DNA of 9,239 bases. It comes from Candidatus Desantisbacteria bacterium CG1_02_38_46. GTDB lineage: Bacteria > Desantisbacteria > UBA1551 > UBA1559. Below the pieces are notes generated by a model that ran no database searches, had not been told where the DNA came from, and saw only the letters and a list, made by a program, of their open reading frames with translations. Positions 232 through 6,874 of the stretch are shown here, piece by piece; position 1 is the first letter of the stretch; the number at the start of each line of letters is the position of its first letter. The position numbers and the translations under genes are program-made. The stretch is from assembly GCA_001871015.1 (NCBI GenBank), contig MNUO01000035.1, positions 1-9,239 on the forward strand, given 5' to 3'.

Positions 232-1038
232 ATGAAGAGAACCACTAAGGAGGTCTATTATGCGGAAAAACGGTCTAGAAAAAGAAGGACTACTCAAGGT
301 TCTAAATGTTACTTCTATCAGCGTTGGTTCTGTAAAGATTGCCAGAGGCCTTTTAAGCCATCCCGAAATAATAAAGGGAAGATAAACTTTTCCTTCAAGG
401 TTAAAATCTGTAATCTTTACTATGACTCTGAAGCCAGTTATCGGGCAGTGCACCGACAATTCAAGGGCATAATTAGTGATCTTCTTCCTGAATTCTTTGG
501 TGTAAGTCAACGGCTGCTACCGAAGATACCACATCAGTTCTGTACTTATCACGCCTTAAAGGCAACAGAACGATATGTAAAATATCATTACAGTGGTGGT
601 GATAAATTCTGGGCAAACCGATTCCTTTTCGTTACAAAGATTATCTGCCAGTGCAAGACTCTGGAAACAGCCCAGCGGGCTTTAGCTTATTTAGAACGCC
701 ACCAGGAAGAACTAAGACGGGCAAAACTCCTTAAGAGAATGAATATTCTACGGTTAAGATTTCCACATCTTATTAAGCATTTCCAGGATTCTAACTTAAG
801 ACCTGATAACAATATTATTGAGAATGTAATTAAGCAACTCAATCAAAAATTCAAAAAGGTTGCCGGGTTTGAAAAATTCCATACTGCTTTTAATTCCATC
901 AGCCTTTTAATTATGCACTATCGGTTTCACAAATTTACTTGTTCCAGAATACCAGGAAATAATGGAAAATCGCCATTAGAGCTTGCGGGGGTTGATACTT
1001 CTCATCTTAACTGGGTACGCTTTTCTCAAAGATCTTAA
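232..1038 (+). pseudogene. DDE/MULE-like transposase remnant, N-terminally truncated and lacking the first catalytic region
   Basis: The 268-residue frame begins in the middle of a zinc-ribbon-type domain. RWFCKDCQRPFKP (about residues 31-43) is the second knuckle and no first CxxC precedes it. A basic helix-turn-helix-like segment, YYDSEASYRAVHRQF (about 63-77), follows. The text then jumps directly to KGIISDLLPEFFGV with PHQFCTYHALKATERY, the region around the second catalytic Asp in mutator/MULE-like transposases. NNIIENVIKQLNQKFKK (about 193-209) holds the third acidic residue, Glu. The stretch normally carrying the first Asp, roughly 100 residues, is absent, so the protein should be catalytically dead. 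The ATG at 232 has no clear ribosome-binding site, and the frame is open only back to 217, so the true start is probably lost. The neighbouring IS630 end is the likely cause. The exact IS family is uncertain. Confidence 0.7.
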
Positions 1039-1041
1039 TTG

Positions 1042-1061
1042 TTGGAAATTATAATTTCCAA
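1042..1061. repeat. 20-bp perfect palindrome downstream of the transposase remnant
   Basis: TTGGAAATTATAATTTCCAA reads the same on both strands. It begins four bases after the transposase stop codon and overlaps by one base the outer arm of the large inverted repeat that follows. It could be a transcription end, a protein-binding site or part of an element end. No T-tract of the intrinsic-terminator type follows it. Confidence 0.75.
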
Positions 1062-1184
1062 TTGTGGATACTGACGCTCTGTGGAAACTATGGATAACAC
1101 AATGAAAGCGTGAAAGTGTGGTGGTTATCACACAGTTTCCACATCGCTTGGATAACCCTTCTGGTTACCCACAGTATCCACAAT
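1061..1184. repeat. interrupted inverted repeat (cruciform) packed with DnaA-box-like 9-mers
   Basis: The outer arms ATTGTGGATACTG (1061-1073) and CAGTATCCACAAT (1172-1184) are perfect 13-bp complements. The inner arms TGTGGAAACT (1080-1089) and AGTTTCCACA (1134-1143) are perfect 10-bp complements. GATAAC (1093-1098) pairs with GTTATC (1124-1129). A side hairpin, GGATAACC-CTTCT-GGTTACCC (1150-1170, one mismatch), sits in the right arm. Against the DnaA-box consensus TTATCCACA, one-mismatch sites occur at 1063-1071 (reverse), 1089-1097 (reverse), 1165-1173 and 1174-1182. Two-mismatch sites occur at 1080-1088 (reverse), 1135-1143 and 1147-1155 (reverse). An AT-rich stretch (1185-1243) follows. 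It may be an origin-like or replication-linked site, or the subterminal region of a transposon; the sequence alone does not decide. Confidence 0.7.
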
Positions 1185-1238
1185 ACTACTGCTAATTTTC
1201 AAATCTCTCTTTATTATTAACTCTAAATTCTGAAAGAT

Positions 1239-1475
1239 TTAAATGGGGTCAGAATGAGCTATCAGCAACCAATTTTGTATACGCTCCCAAGAATTGCGAA
1301 AATCAATATATTCATTGCCATCCACATCCCAGATTCTACATCCCTTTCCCCTGACAATCAATGCTGGTTCTTCATTTTTAAACCTCGGTGCTTTTGAATT
1401 TGTTGAACTGCCACCAGCAAGATAATTCAAACTTTCCTCATACTTTTCCCATGACTTTTTTACAGAAAAAAACAC
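1239..1475 (-). pseudogene. glutamate-1-semialdehyde-aminomutase-like (class III) aminotransferase, N-terminal fragment cut by mobile DNA
   Basis: Residues 1-62 match the start of class III PLP-dependent aminotransferases of the glutamate-1-semialdehyde 2,1-aminomutase type: KKSWEKYEESLNYLAGG, then PALIVRGKGCRIWDVDGNEY followed by IDFRNS. Full-length members are about 430 residues; here the homology stops near base 1290. The last 15 or so codons (WERIQNWLLIAHSDPI) look foreign, and a stop follows in the inserted DNA. The PLP lysine and the whole catalytic domain are missing. The start is a GTG at 1475, chosen because AAGGAGG (1486-1480) lies four bases upstream. Such aminotransferases serve tetrapyrrole synthesis or, in divergent copies, amino-sugar and glycan pathways. 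The upstream secreted carbohydrate-active genes make the second role plausible, but this is inference. The rest of the gene may lie beyond the left edge or be lost. Confidence 0.8.
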
Positions 1476-1490: not shown

Positions 1491-1563
1491 AAATTAGGGA
1501 CGGGTTCTAATTTTGCACAAGGACACGGGAACGGACTCAAAAATTAGAACCCGTCCCTAATTT
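1491..1563. repeat. palindromic element (MITE/REP-like) with perfect 24-bp inverted repeats
   Basis: The arm 1491-1514 (AAATTAGGGACGGG...) is the exact reverse complement of 1540-1563 (...CCCGTCCCTAATTT). They are separated by a 25-base loop, 1515-1539, which carries GGACACGGGAACGG. No coding function is visible. On the minus strand the element supplies the last eight codons and the stop of the frame at 1974-1537. It also fills the whole space before the aminotransferase ribosome-binding site. A long stem with a conserved-looking loop fits a non-autonomous, transposase-mobilised repeat. As RNA it would form a very stable hairpin between two genes. It lacks the T-run expected of a plain intrinsic terminator. 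Confidence 0.85.
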
Positions 1564-1974
1564 CTCCCAGCCAAGCGAAACGGAACAAATGTTTCTGGAT
1601 GAGAAAAGAACTTTATCTTTGTATTTTAACAGGTTTCCTTTAAAGAGAACATATTTTTCTATTTCATTTTTTAATGAAAGAAAAATATATGAATTCTTTC
1701 CTGAGAAAGAGTGTTCCTGGTAGGATAGGGGAGCATCCTTTTCGCTTGTGTTAAAAAGTACCTGTTTGAGACCAAACTCATCCTGTATCTTTGTACCGAT
1801 AAGGTCTTTTTCTTCTATTGCATGAGCTTTTATGCCCAGTTTTTCTTCTTCTAATTCTTCTTTCTTTTCTTCTGTTTGTTTAAGAGCAAGAGAAACAGTG
1901 CCCATAAAATAATTTTCAGAAGCGGTATCTTTACCTATTATTTCAAATTTGAGAAAATATATATACGCCACCAT
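1537..1974 (-). pseudogene. C-terminal remnant of a second heparinase-type protein (145-codon frame)
   Basis: I see no complete domain, but two stretches resemble the C-terminal beta-sandwich of heparinase II/III-like proteins: SENYFMGTVSLALKQ (about residues 19-34) and GLKQVLFNTSEKD followed later by FKGNLLKYKDKVLFSSR with NICSVSLGWEK (about 112-138). The last is similar in pattern to IGKKLFESDYPLSLEID in the upstream 1643-residue protein, so it may be a paralogue's tail. The frame overlaps the end of that gene by 32 bases. The ATG at 1974 has no convincing ribosome-binding site, and the first 13 or so residues are just the other gene read in a different frame. A Glu/Lys-rich stretch lies at about 35-46. 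The frame ends KLGTGSNF-stop, entirely encoded by the palindromic element at 1491-1563. It is most likely a fragment left by rearrangement; a short expressed protein is not excluded. Confidence 0.5.
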
Positions 1975-3019
1975 CTTTACAACCAGCGACTATTTCTTCT
2001 TTACCATCTTTGTTTAAGTCTTCTACATTAATTACATTAACTCCTGAAGGAACAGGATATGTTCCGATTTCCTCTCCTTTTAAGGAATATATGGCAACTT
2101 CTCCATCTCCCTTTCCCAATACTAACTTTGGCTCTTCCAGAGAGCCTACTTTTGGCTCTTTTGGTGAAATAAGAGACGAAGAGTTGATAGGAGCGTCAAA
2201 GCTCTTCAAAAATATTTTTCCGCCATCTTTATCAAGAATATAAACAAAATTACTTGCTGAAGAGACAATTATTTCCTTAAAACCGTCTTTATTGACATCA
2301 AGAGGAATAATGGAGGTGATTCTGTCCCCACAGCTGATATTCCATTTTAATTTTCCTTTAGAATCCAGGCAATTCAGGGTGCCGTTATCAGTGCAGACAA
2401 AGACTTCCTCTTTACCGTCATTATCCAGGTCATAAGCACAGACTAAGTTAAAATGCGGGGTAGGGGAGCCAAATGTCCATATTTTTTCACCTCTGGAATC
2501 AAGAAGGTGGCACTGATAATACTGATTAGCTGCAATTAATTCTTTTTTTCCATCACCATTTACGTCACTGATAAAACCAGTGGTTGCCGGGTGAGCATAA
2601 ACATATTTCTTCCATTTTAACTTGCCCTTGCTATCCAGACAAAAATAATGCCAGTTACCCAATCCGCAGATTACTTCTTTTTCTCCGTCGTTATCTAAAT
2701 CTGAAACTAAGACTACTTTTACTCCTGCTTTGTAACCACCCCATCTGGAGAATTGATATTTCCATTTTAAATTACCTTTTTCGTCAAGGACGTAGAGGTT
2801 TTCGTCTTCTGAACCAATAAGCACTTCTGCTTTTCCGTCATTGTCAAGGTCATCAGTTGCAATAGAATTGATTCTTCCTTTGGTAGAATAAGACCACAGC
2901 TTTTCTGCCTTTTCGTTAAATACGTAGACATTTCTGTCTTCAGAGCCAACAGCAATCTCTTTTTTCCCGTCTCCGTCCAGGTCATAAACACAAAGTGAAG
3001 TAATAGATTTATCTGCTTT
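1943..3019 (-). repeat. eight propeller repeat units (FG-GAP/PQQ-like) at the C-terminus of the heparinase-like protein
   Basis: Units of about 45 residues follow the pattern D-x-D-x-D-G-x-x-E, a short strand (EIAVGSEDGNVYVL-like) and then a K/LKWKY-like strand. Calcium-type loops stand at residues 1298-1306, 1342-1350, 1392-1400, 1437-1445, 1482-1490, 1526-1534 and 1619-1627. Spacing is 44-50 residues except for the last gap of 93. That gap contains a unit (about 1560-1605, LVLGKGDGEVAIYSLKGEEI) with no Asp loop. The eight units suggest an eight-bladed propeller used as a binding or scaffolding head. At the DNA level the KLKWK codons give recurring TTCCATTTTAA on the plus strand. Confidence 0.85.
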
Positions 3020-6000
3020 AGCCCGGGCAAGTAATTTCATATTCTTTGTTGGTCTTTCTTTTTTAGCTTCTTCCACGGTTTCTTCAGAGACAATTTTTTG
3101 TTTCTGTAAACTTGAGTTTATTTCATTTAATATTGAAGAGTCAAGAGAAAACGAGAGCTCATAAGTTCCCTTAGAAAGAGTAAGAGAAATTCCATCTTTT
3201 CCTTCTTCTATCCTGGAAGATGGAGAAATCAAGACTTGCTTCAAAGGAAGGGGGAACGTAATCTTTACTTCGTTATTATTCTCATTTATAATCTTTGCCT
3301 TTCCTTTAGCTAAGTCAATTTCAAGGGATAAAGGATAATCAGATTCAAAGAGTTTTTTTCCTATGCTTAAAGAGATTCCCTGAACAATGCTGAATATGTC
3401 TTTAGTCAGATGGAACATCTTTGCTTCAAGAGAAAATACAGGAGAAGAGAACTCTTTTTCACATATTCCTGCAAAAGAAGTATATGTTTCTGTTTCTTTT
3501 TCTCCTCTTATTCTTACGACAGTAGGAGCAATCTTTGACACTGTATAGGTGCAACCTTTAGTTTCAGGAGTAGCATAGAGAAGGTTAAGAAAAGCGTAAT
3601 CTTCATCTTTCTTTAATTTAATATTCTTATCCTGGTAGAGAATTTTCCAGATTGGGTCAGCATAAGTATAACTCCCCCAGCCAGGTCCCTCTTCTTCTTT
3701 TACATTCAATTGTGCATCACCTGCCTGAACAACGTTTAATAATTCTCCTGATTCTCTCTTTACAGAGGAAAAGTTCATATTTTCTGCTTCAACAACAATC
3801 TTGTTCTTTGTTTCCTTATTTATGAATTCAATTCTGTCCATTACTACTCCAGGCCCTTCTCTTAAAGTAATAAAGAAGTTATAAATTTTTGAATTATCGA
3901 GTTTAAGAAGTAAAGGACCTCCTCTTCCTCCCCATTCCAATCCGCTTGGACCAATCCTACTAAGTGGAATATGAAAAGCATCCAGACGTTTTCCATCCAT
4001 ATCTACCCACAGGGAATCATGAGAACCGTCAGTCCCATAGGCAAAAATGCTTACTTCATAATTCCCTTTTTCTAAATAGATATCAAATGAGAGGCAGGAA
4101 TCATGGCTATCAAATTCTATTACTTTGTTTCCGCTTGCCCCCTTATCTTCTTTTACCAAAATTAAACCACTGAGTGTACCGCCCTTCTGGTTAGCAATAA
4201 ATCTTTTGTTGGTAAGATGTATCTCTCCAGCAGTGCGCCAGAAAGTGCGAAAGAGATAATCTGCAGGAGTATTTGCTTTGACCTGGTCAATGAAAAGGAA
4301 ATATTCTCCTTTATTCCATATAATATTCCTGTACCAATCTACCTTATTATAATCCTTAAGATAAGTCTGGGCAAAACCTGTTAGAGGAAAATCAGCTAAA
4401 TATCCCAGTCCGCACACAGCAGGAATAAGCTCATCTTCCCCGTCTCTTATAATAATCATTGTATTGTGATGCTTTGGAGCGCTGAGAATATAATCACCTT
4501 CGTCGAGGAACACTCTTTTGTTTTTGGCAAATCTGATAATAGAATTTCCATCAAGGTGTTTATGTCCTCCTGAAGAAAAACCATCAAGAAGAAGATATTC
4601 ATCCTCAGGATTAAATCCATTGCGAAAAGTAATTTTATCAAAAGTATTTTCATATGGAAGGTTAAATTTTGCATCTGGGAACTTAGTACTGAAAAACTCA
4701 TAAACTCCTTTATCTAAAGGACAAACCTTAACTCCAATGAAATCTTCTGGTATGACAGAACTGGCAAGAGAAGAGTGATAATTATGTAGATGCTTAGAAG
4801 TTTTCTTTTCAATCTTCTCAGCCATCCATGCCAATCTTCCATCATTATAATACCATGAAGCCATTCTTAATATTCTCAGAAGCCCTACATCACTAAAGAA
4901 ACCATGACCGCAGTCCCCAAACCGAGGTTCCCAGCCGAAATTATCAGTGCACATTATTCCCAATTCAGCGATTTTCTTAGCATTGCCATTTTCAAAAAAT
5001 TCTGTTTCCCCGCTGTTTAAAGCATAGACCATTGTATGAAATGGAACAAGCCATTGATAACCGGCAGAATCTTCCTGGGGTTTGAAAGATTTAAATTGAC
5101 CGCGGAAACACCTCTGTGCTAACTTCATCCAGTATTCTGCTTCGTTGACAAAAGGATAATATTTAAGAAGATATTCAGATACAAAATATAGACCTAAAGA
5201 AGAAAAACTTTCATGGTTATGTGGAATTTCATAAATATTGTTTTTTTCTCTATGTTTAGGTCCTGACATTTTCCAACAATTGACTGTAGCTTTAGCATAG
5301 TCAATAAAATATTGAACCACTTCTTCTCTTTCTTCGTCAGTAATTACAGGGCATTCTTCTATCTGGTCCCAGGCAATGAGGAGTACCCACATTTCAAAAG
5401 TAAAAAGTGCTTCCATTTTAGGGTCTCTTATAGATACAGCATGGGCAAGCATTCTTTCTTTGGCTAAATTTGCCCAGCGTGGGTCTCCTGAAAGATAATA
5501 ATTTCTTGCAAATCCTATAGCTATATTTGCACAATTTCTGGTCATTCCCCATCCACGATAAAAAGTATCTCCTTCCCTGAATTTCTTTGCGTCTTCTAAG
5601 TATTGTTTCTCCTGTTCCTTAGAAAGGGATGGAACACCTGCAAGACTACTTTTTACAATAATTGCTGGTTCAATAATAAAGTCTTTTCCTGGCTTAAGTA
5701 AGGATAAAAATTTGTCTACTGCAAGATTAAAACCTTCTTTTTCGCTTGCTCCAATAAAGACAATGTTTTTACCGTATCCAAAGGGATTGTAGATTGTTCT
5801 TATCTCATAACCATTGCCTCCGGGAAAATAAGCATCGCAATAAATATAATAGTGGTGGTAGAGTCTTTGTGCAAGTTTACCGGAGTCTAAATTTCCCAGA
5901 AGGATAATGTTGGACTTTTTTAAATCTTCCTCAGTTACCAGGGAATCAAGTTTTATTTCTAAATTTACACCTGTATATTCCTGTATTTTCTTCTGAATGA

Positions 6001-6874
6001 AATTTGCCAGTTCTTCTAATTGCTTTGGAGCAACAATCAAAGAATAAAATTTACCTTCTTTTAAAGAACTCTTTATATTTTCTTTTGCCATTTTTCCTAT
6101 CGCCTCCTTTTGAAAAACAGGGGACCTCATTTTGATTTTTTCAATTTCCTGCGAACCTAAAAGGTTGGTACACTGTTCTTCGAAGTGTTTCTTTATTTCT
6201 TCTTCAGTCAATGCGCGATTGTAAATTCTTACTTCATCAATAAAACCGCAGAAATAATTAAAGCCAGTGCTGCGTCCTATATAAAAATTATCGGCAAAAT
6301 TAGTGATTTGGCCTTCATATAATTTACTTGCAGTCATTACTCCGTTTTGATACAATTTTATAGTTTTTTCATTGGAATCATAAGTAGCAGCAACGTGCAT
6401 CCATTCGTTAACGGGAATGTTTTTTCCCGTTATACTGCCGTATCCGGTAATATCAGTGTTAAGGTAAAAAACGATGTTTTGTGAGGGTTGATGATAAAAA
6501 AGTTGATATCCGGAACTGCCACCACCCTTTGAAACAATGCCATCCCATCCCTTTCCATCTCCCGTTCTTTTCACCCAGCACTCAATTGTAATGGCATCTG
6601 CGATATTTAAGATGTCATCGCTCCCGCAATCAACATAAGCATCTTCCCCATTAAATTTAAGAGCATAACCTTTTTTCTGCTTAACCCATTCCGCATCTCC
6701 ATTAATAGTTCCATCATTTCCATTTCCTGAAAGGTCCTTCACTTCTTCTGCTTCACCTTCGTCAAAATTCCAGTAGGCAACAAGGTCTTTTTCTTTTGTA
6801 CCAGCTACCTCTATTGACCCCAGTAAGCCTCCCATTATGCCGAATGCCATTCCCAAAATTATCCATTTCTTCAT
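1943..6874 (-). CDS. secreted multidomain heparinase II/III-like protein: LamG, lyase-like core, CBM-like insert, beta-propeller
   Basis: This 1643-residue exported protein probably binds and cleaves an acidic polysaccharide. A signal peptide (MKKWIILGMAFGIMGGLLGS) is followed by a LamG/concanavalin-like domain (about 30-232, ending FIDEVRIYNRALTEEEI). A small alpha/beta domain (about 270-405, ILLGNLDSGKLAQRLYHHYY) is of a kind found before lyase-type toroids. The alpha/alpha-toroid (about 425-700) has PHNHES at 551-556, a candidate catalytic Asn-His, and Tyr606 in a likely active-site position. The heparinase II/III beta-sandwich begins near 745, with GGHKHLDGNS (769-778), FLDEGDYI and KHHNTM (801-806). 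Residues about 890-1032 look like an inserted CBM-type jelly roll, and the sandwich resumes to about 1250. A Glu/Lys-rich linker leads to eight propeller repeats (1286-1643). The start is supported by AAGGAAG seven bases upstream. Substrate is unknown; lyase activity is inferred from family motifs. Confidence 0.85.
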   Translation of the reverse strand: MKKWIILGMAFGIMGGLLGSIEVAGTKEKDLVAYWNFDEGEAEEVKDLSGNGNDGTINGDAEWVKQKKGYALKFNGEDAYVDCGSDDILNIADAITIECWVKRTGDGKGWDGIVSKGGGSSGYQLFYHQPSQNIVFYLNTDITGYGSITGKNIPVNEWMHVAATYDSNEKTIKLYQNGVMTASKLYEGQITNFADNFYIGRSTGFNYFCGFIDEVRIYNRALTEEEIKKHFEEQCTNLLGSQEIEKIKMRSPVFQKEAIGKMAKENIKSSLKEGKFYSLIVAPKQLEELANFIQKKIQEYTGVNLEIKLDSLVTEEDLKKSNIILLGNLDSGKLAQRLYHHYYIYCDAYFPGGNGYEIRTIYNPFGYGKNIVFIGASEKEGFNLAVDKFLSLLKPGKDFIIEPAIIVKSSLAGVPSLSKEQEKQYLEDAKKFREGDTFYRGWGMTRNCANIAIGFARNYYLSGDPRWANLAKERMLAHAVSIRDPKMEALFTFEMWVLLIAWDQIEECPVITDEEREEVVQYFIDYAKATVNCWKMSGPKHREKNNIYEIPHNHESFSSLGLYFVSEYLLKYYPFVNEAEYWMKLAQRCFRGQFKSFKPQEDSAGYQWLVPFHTMVYALNSGETEFFENGNAKKIAELGIMCTDNFGWEPRFGDCGHGFFSDVGLLRILRMASWYYNDGRLAWMAEKIEKKTSKHLHNYHSSLASSVIPEDFIGVKVCPLDKGVYEFFSTKFPDAKFNLPYENTFDKITFRNGFNPEDEYLLLDGFSSGGHKHLDGNSIIRFAKNKRVFLDEGDYILSAPKHHNTMIIIRDGEDELIPAVCGLGYLADFPLTGFAQTYLKDYNKVDWYRNIIWNKGEYFLFIDQVKANTPADYLFRTFWRTAGEIHLTNKRFIANQKGGTLSGLILVKEDKGASGNKVIEFDSHDSCLSFDIYLEKGNYEVSIFAYGTDGSHDSLWVDMDGKRLDAFHIPLSRIGPSGLEWGGRGGPLLLKLDNSKIYNFFITLREGPGVVMDRIEFINKETKNKIVVEAENMNFSSVKRESGELLNVVQAGDAQLNVKEEEGPGWGSYTYADPIWKILYQDKNIKLKKDEDYAFLNLLYATPETKGCTYTVSKIAPTVVRIRGEKETETYTSFAGICEKEFSSPVFSLEAKMFHLTKDIFSIVQGISLSIGKKLFESDYPLSLEIDLAKGKAKIINENNNEVKITFPLPLKQVLISPSSRIEEGKDGISLTLSKGTYELSFSLDSSILNEINSSLQKQKIVSEETVEEAKKERPTKNMKLLARAKADKSITSLCVYDLDGDGKKEIAVGSEDRNVYVFNEKAEKLWSYSTKGRINSIATDDLDNDGKAEVLIGSEDENLYVLDEKGNLKWKYQFSRWGGYKAGVKVVLVSDLDNDGEKEVICGLGNWHYFCLDSKGKLKWKKYVYAHPATTGFISDVNGDGKKELIAANQYYQCHLLDSRGEKIWTFGSPTPHFNLVCAYDLDNDGKEEVFVCTDNGTLNCLDSKGKLKWNISCGDRITSIIPLDVNKDGFKEIIVSSASNFVYILDKDGGKIFLKSFDAPINSSSLISPKEPKVGSLEEPKLVLGKGDGEVAIYSLKGEEIGTYPVPSGVNVINVEDLNKDGKEEIVAGCKDGGVYIFSQI

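What the first reader, a model, noticed from the sequence alone, without database searches (positions are those of the whole stretch)
1061..1243. DnaA-box-like array folded into a 124-bp cruciform beside an AT-rich stretch
At least four one-mismatch and three two-mismatch matches to TTATCCACA lie in about 120 bp on both strands, arranged as nested inverted repeats, followed by an AT-rich segment (1185-1243). This is the layout of a replication origin, yet it sits between a dead transposase and a broken gene. Possibilities are a chromosomal or plasmid origin invaded by mobile DNA, a transposon-borne DnaA-titration or replication-linked site, or a transposase-binding terminal region that mimics DnaA boxes.
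Basis: partly seen in the sequence, partly recalled or inferred. Interest (0 to 1): 0.65.

Follow-up and report, generated by a model that had tools for sequence, protein, structure and literature searches.

The report
IS-borne three-way-junction RNA-like element
The supposed replication origin is a small branched hairpin carried near one end of a jumping gene; the same fold recurs in several unrelated jumping-gene families in four bacterial phyla, and its wobble pairs suggest it acts as a single strand, probably RNA, on the strand opposite to the one first read.

Summary
In detail: four one-mismatch and three two-mismatch DnaA-box matches in 1063-1182, nested in a 124-bp inverted repeat, none expected by chance. 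It is not an origin. It is one of eight copies in this genome, seven of them just downstream of the same transposase and about 100 bp from the right end of one insertion sequence (IS; 8-bp target duplications). DnaA-box letters are not conserved in relatives; the fold is. A covariance model finds it in Atribacterota, the phylum of an Auribacterota MAG and, through a viral contig, Bradyrhizobium, Acidiphilium and Skermanella plasmids. It lies in or beside at least five transposase families: the window's unclassified one, ISNCY/IS481, ISH6, IS256 and IS3. Position and orientation differ between families. All copies share a three-way junction with strong covariation (95 double-sided changes, shuffled mean 28). 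Non-Watson-Crick pairs become G-U only on the minus strand (42 versus 3), which also folds better in 24 of 24 copies. So the functional form is probably a minus-strand single strand, most likely RNA. It is not in Rfam. No Y1 transposase locus examined carries a copy, so it is not a standard REP element. Its function is inferred, not shown: a portable noncoding RNA module of unrelated DDE insertion sequences.

The parts
232..1038 (+). dead IS transposase (DDE type, unclassified; 77% identical to an intact Atribacterota relative) with an internal deletion
   Evidence: residues 82-172 of the relative missing; only sub-threshold IS6/IS1/IS256 matches
1061..1184 (-). three-way-junction element; functional single strand inferred to be the minus strand
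1061..1073 (.). P1 arm, pairs with 1172-1184
1172..1184 (.). P1 arm, pairs with 1061-1073
1076..1088 (.). short GC helix 1076-1077 and lower P2 1080-1088, pair with 1146-1147 and 1135-1143
   Evidence: covariation C-G to T-A in the short helix
1135..1147 (.). 3' side of P2 (1135-1143) and of the short helix (1146-1147)
1149..1171 (-). P3 hairpin; A1152/C1168 read as a G-U wobble on the minus strand, kept in 21 of 24 copies
1185..1192 (-). motif at the 5' foot of the minus-strand fold, GCAGTAGT (GTAGTAG or GTCGTCG in the non-proteobacterial copies, GCTGTTG-like in several alphaproteobacterial ones)
1193..1243 (.). AT-rich stretch, 5' of the fold on the minus strand; AT-rich also in the non-proteobacterial copies
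   Evidence: sequence
1042..1061 (.). small perfect palindrome TTGGAAATTATAATTTCCAA just beyond P1, only in the window copy
   Evidence: sequence
1264..1287 (-). right terminal inverted repeat of the IS (AGCGTATACAAAATTGGTTGCT)

Best explanation
The element is an IS-borne, portable noncoding module. Shown: it is a conserved three-way junction (P1, P2, P3) that covaries, sits inside the ends of several unrelated DDE insertion sequences, is better conserved than its flanks, and has a strand polarity (conserved G-U wobbles) pointing to the minus strand of the window. Inferred: it is made as RNA from the minus strand, starting near the GTAG/GTCG motif downstream of an AT-rich stretch, and acts by its fold, probably by binding a host or transposition protein or by controlling expression at the IS end. 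Also inferred: it is exchanged between IS families within a genome. The tips of its hairpins are freely replaced (in this genome by a palindrome that is common elsewhere), so the junction and helix feet matter rather than the loops. The DnaA-box look is a by-product of the GTGGATAA letters at the helix feet.
For: Eight copies in the genome, seven in one IS, one beside a different ORF. 8-bp target duplications at two pairs of IS ends. Covariation over 24 copies: 18 pairs and 95 cells with double-sided change against shuffled 10.6 and 27.9, 0/500, and slid controls at most 7 and 11. Minus-strand G-U 42 against 3; one P3 wobble kept in 21/24; minus strand more stable in 24/24. Same fold with ISNCY/IS481, ISH6, IS256 and IS3 transposases. 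In IS256 of two species the element is 83% identical and its flanks 57%. Elements of different IS families in one genome are more alike (91%) than the same IS family between genomes (81-84%). Alphaproteobacterial homologues. Absent from Rfam.
Against: No transcript data. No convincing promoter or terminator: one weak minus-strand match, 3 found against 1.6 expected by chance. Position and orientation relative to the transposase differ between IS families, so no single regulatory scheme fits. Half of the wobble asymmetry is one column, and related sequences are not independent. G-T pairs also stabilise single-stranded DNA (DNA parameters), so ssDNA is not excluded. Relatives of the same IS lack the element (L018, L019), so it is not essential for transposition. 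Two copies sit by non-IS genes (L094, L097).
Confidence: 0.5

Rival explanations
1. Single-stranded DNA hairpin of REP type: a tag at the 5' foot of a palindrome, recognised by a Y1 (HUH) transposase and moved in trans into IS ends.
For: On the minus strand GTAG (window, L012, L015, L097) or CGTC (Atribacterota) stands at the 5' foot, the two tags that define REP super-families (PMC3733652). Y1 genes in 9 of 10 genomes searched. G-T pairs also fit ssDNA.
Against: No copy of the element in 18 fetched Y1 loci. Not spread through intergenic regions: no non-IS copy in the own genome down to E = 1. Alphaproteobacterial copies have GCTGTTG-like motifs instead. 59-146 nt and branched, not 20-40 bp. 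G010 has the element but no Y1 gene.
Confidence: 0.2
2. Passive hitch-hiker: a palindromic repeat trapped in the noncoding ends of IS and copied with them, without function.
For: Varying position and orientation; related IS without it; hairpin tips replaced by other palindromes.
Against: Covariation, a wobble kept across four phyla, and element identity of 83% against 57% in the flanks.
Confidence: 0.15
3. Double-stranded DNA site for a transposase or host protein (transposon enhancer or end).
For: Inverted GTGGATAA motifs; location near IS ends.
Against: Shared by unrelated transposases; one-strand wobble bias; sequence changes freely while pairing is kept.
Confidence: 0.1
4. Chromosomal or plasmid replication origin, or DnaA-titration site.
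For: DnaA-box-like array beside an AT-rich stretch.
Against: Eight copies in one genome; boxes not conserved in relatives; no skew turn.
Confidence: 0.03

Closest known systems
REP elements / REPtrons (GTAG and CGTC super-families, Di Nocera 2013, PMC3733652)
   Same: Palindrome with a GTAG or CGTC motif at one foot in many copies; small; repeated; may act as RNA
   Different: Branched three-way junction of 59-146 nt, low copy, mostly inside IS, no copy at Y1 genes; motif differs in alphaproteobacterial copies
IS110/IS1111 bridge RNA and seekRNA (PMC11208160, PMC11187229)
   Same: Structured RNA encoded in noncoding IS ends
   Different: Those belong to one DEDD recombinase family and carry programmable guide loops; here DDE-type transposases of several families. 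Loops were not tested for target matches
IS200/IS605 omega RNA
   Same: Structured RNA at an IS end
   Different: No TnpB/IscB gene was seen at the loci read here; unrelated transposases
Regulatory RNAs of IS10, IS200, ISPpu9 (PMC5006887, PMC12594629, PMC8450116)
   Same: IS-encoded small RNAs that control transposase expression
   Different: Each is specific to its own IS; this fold is shared between families

Membership tests
Bacterial oriC / DnaA-box cluster | Conserved DnaA boxes | tested here: not met
   no exact box in the window; relatives mostly carry TTATCCCCA or 2-mismatch forms
Bacterial oriC / DnaA-box cluster | Single locus with GC-skew turn | tested here: not met
   eight copies; no skew turn within 9 kb (weak)
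REP element | GTAG or CGTC tag at one foot of the palindrome | tested here: inconclusive
   present in most non-proteobacterial copies; mostly absent in alphaproteobacterial ones
REP element | Small (20-40 bp) palindromic unit in many intergenic copies | tested here: not met
   59-146 nt, 1-8 copies per carrier genome, nearly all in IS
REP element | Copies flanking a Y1 (RAYT) gene | tested here: not met
   no match in 18 Y1 loci
IS110 bridge RNA | DEDD recombinase of IS110/IS1111 | tested here: not met
   ISNCY/IS481, ISH6, IS256, IS3 and an unclassified DDE-like transposase
IS110 bridge RNA | Loops matching target and donor DNA | not tested
   -
Any Rfam 15 family | Score at gathering threshold | tested here: not met
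   gathering; low threshold
RNA element | Compensatory base changes and G-U pairs on one strand | tested here: met
RNA element | Transcript of that strand | not testable with these tools

The most novel reading that the evidence does not exclude
A noncoding RNA module shared by unrelated DDE insertion-sequence families across several phyla, exchanged between them and acting through a common host partner, i.e. a cross-family transposon RNA that is not tied to one transposase.
Probability: 0.35. Interest if true: 0.85.

Novelty: new variant of a known kind. Interest (0 to 1): 0.6.

Why it matters
As far as I know, IS-encoded RNAs described so far serve a single transposase family. A fold kept by covariation in several unrelated DDE families, with a fixed strand polarity, would mean that many simple transposons depend on, or carry, a common RNA. 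It can be tested in cultured Bradyrhizobium strains.

Tried and rejected
oriC and DnaA titration. REP/RAYT membership. Rfam families. An early view that scarce G-U pairs meant a DNA-level palindrome was dropped after the opposite strand was counted. Pattern TTGTGGATANTGACG.. in viral contigs gave only coding-sequence chance hits; two further patterns gave none. Window element in plasmids and E. coli: none; L092 element in plasmids none; L015 element in phages only one weak partial hit. The window's transposase family is absent from plasmids. Gemmatimonadota scan reached one genome only. A paper search for a shared IS RNA found none; others listed only family-specific IS RNAs.

Full report
The array is real.

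It belongs to an insertion sequence. In the own genome (1.73 Mb, 133 contigs) the element occurs eight times. Seven copies stand directly after the same kind of transposase C-terminus and about 100 bp before a sharp IS end. Pairing left and right ends gives 8-bp target duplications, AAATATTG (C101/C51) and AAATCCTT (C108/C15). The eighth copy (C59) precedes an unidentified ORF. The window's own transposase is dead: an internal stretch equivalent to 91 residues is missing. Intact relatives of the IS with the same element lie in two Atribacterota MAGs (L015, L016); relatives in one Gemmatimonadota genome lack it (L018, L019).

The element is a fold, not a sequence. A covariance model found it in 7 of 50 genomes of the phylum of L015 and in 1 of 44 of the phylum of an Auribacterota MAG. 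There it lies near ISNCY/IS481-like (G011, four identical IS copies with 15-17-bp duplications; G009), ISH6 (G014, G010) and IS256 (G014, G009) transposases; L098 and L099 share flanks with the IS256 ends and look like remnants. Two copies are beside a 23S-IVP gene and an AbiEi gene. A pattern drawn from the minus-strand P3 and junction then found a reduced copy next to an IS3-like transposase on a viral contig. That copy led to Bradyrhizobium, Acidiphilium and Skermanella plasmids, near ISBj12, an IS21 helper gene and an IS256 transposase; that these copies lie inside those IS was not shown. Because the pattern preselected P3 and the junction, only the P1 and P2 match is independent evidence there.

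Covariation over 24 copies is strong: 91.7% of cells paired, 18 pairs and 95 cells changed on both sides against 10.6 and 27.9 in shuffles, and no slid register comes near. The alignment was fitted to the model, which favours it; the earlier MAFFT alignment of seven copies gave the same picture.

The strand matters. Read on the window's + strand, non-Watson-Crick pairs are A-C 42 times and G-U 3 times; on the minus strand they are therefore G-U 42 and A-C 3. One wobble at the foot of P3 is kept in 21 of 24 copies although its neighbours change; outside that column the ratio is 21 to 3. The minus strand is the more stable in 24 of 24 copies. Copies are related, so these are not independent trials. 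They point to a single-stranded functional form on the minus strand, RNA more likely than DNA.

Read that way, the fold begins just after a GTAGTAG or GTCGTCG motif and an AT-rich stretch; the alphaproteobacterial copies mostly have GCTGTTG-like motifs. This resembles the tags of REP elements, but size, copy number, location and the lack of copies at Y1 genes speak against membership.

The element seems to be exchanged within genomes: G014's ISH6 and IS256 copies are 91% identical, while the same IS family differs more between genomes (81-84%). In IS256 of G009 and G014 it is 83% identical against 57% in the flanks. Relative to the transposase, the inferred functional strand lies downstream antisense (window IS, IS3-like), upstream sense (ISNCY, C59), downstream sense (IS256) or upstream divergent (ISH6). 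No single cis-regulatory scheme covers these, which is why a trans-acting or protein-binding role is preferred; this step is inference.

Noticed in passing
G000 C77:2450-2464, 2556-2570, 317-331 (L109-L111); element tips in L003, L005, L006, L008: The palindrome GTCGCC-NNN-GGCGAC occurs at 21 perfect sites in the own genome (reversed control 0). By eye some lie in hairpin tips of what look like 16S and 23S rRNA, and it replaces the P3 tip of otherwise near-identical IS copies (L002 against L003).
   Followed up: partly
window 1498-1561: Long inverted repeat TTAGGGACGGGTTCTAATTTT ... AAAATTAGAACCCGTCCCTAA between the aminotransferase fragment and the next gene.
   Followed up: no
window 1943-6874: 1643-aa protein with a laminin-G-like domain and FG-GAP/beta-propeller repeats.
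   Followed up: no
L142:186-659 (-): The IS3-like transposase ORF runs through the element antisense; its C-terminal tail ...LRLDNAGALPTCSQPPQQQ is the translated P3.
   Followed up: partly
L092:2461-2714 (-); L086:4594-4655 (+): T-box leader and fluoride riboswitch in the same stretches as copies of the element.
   Followed up: no
L017:3062-3170: The Auribacterota MAG's relative of the window IS has another hairpin at the same place, GGAGTTACCCACA...TGTGGATAACTCC, with the same A-C (minus-strand G-U) mismatch.
   Followed up: no
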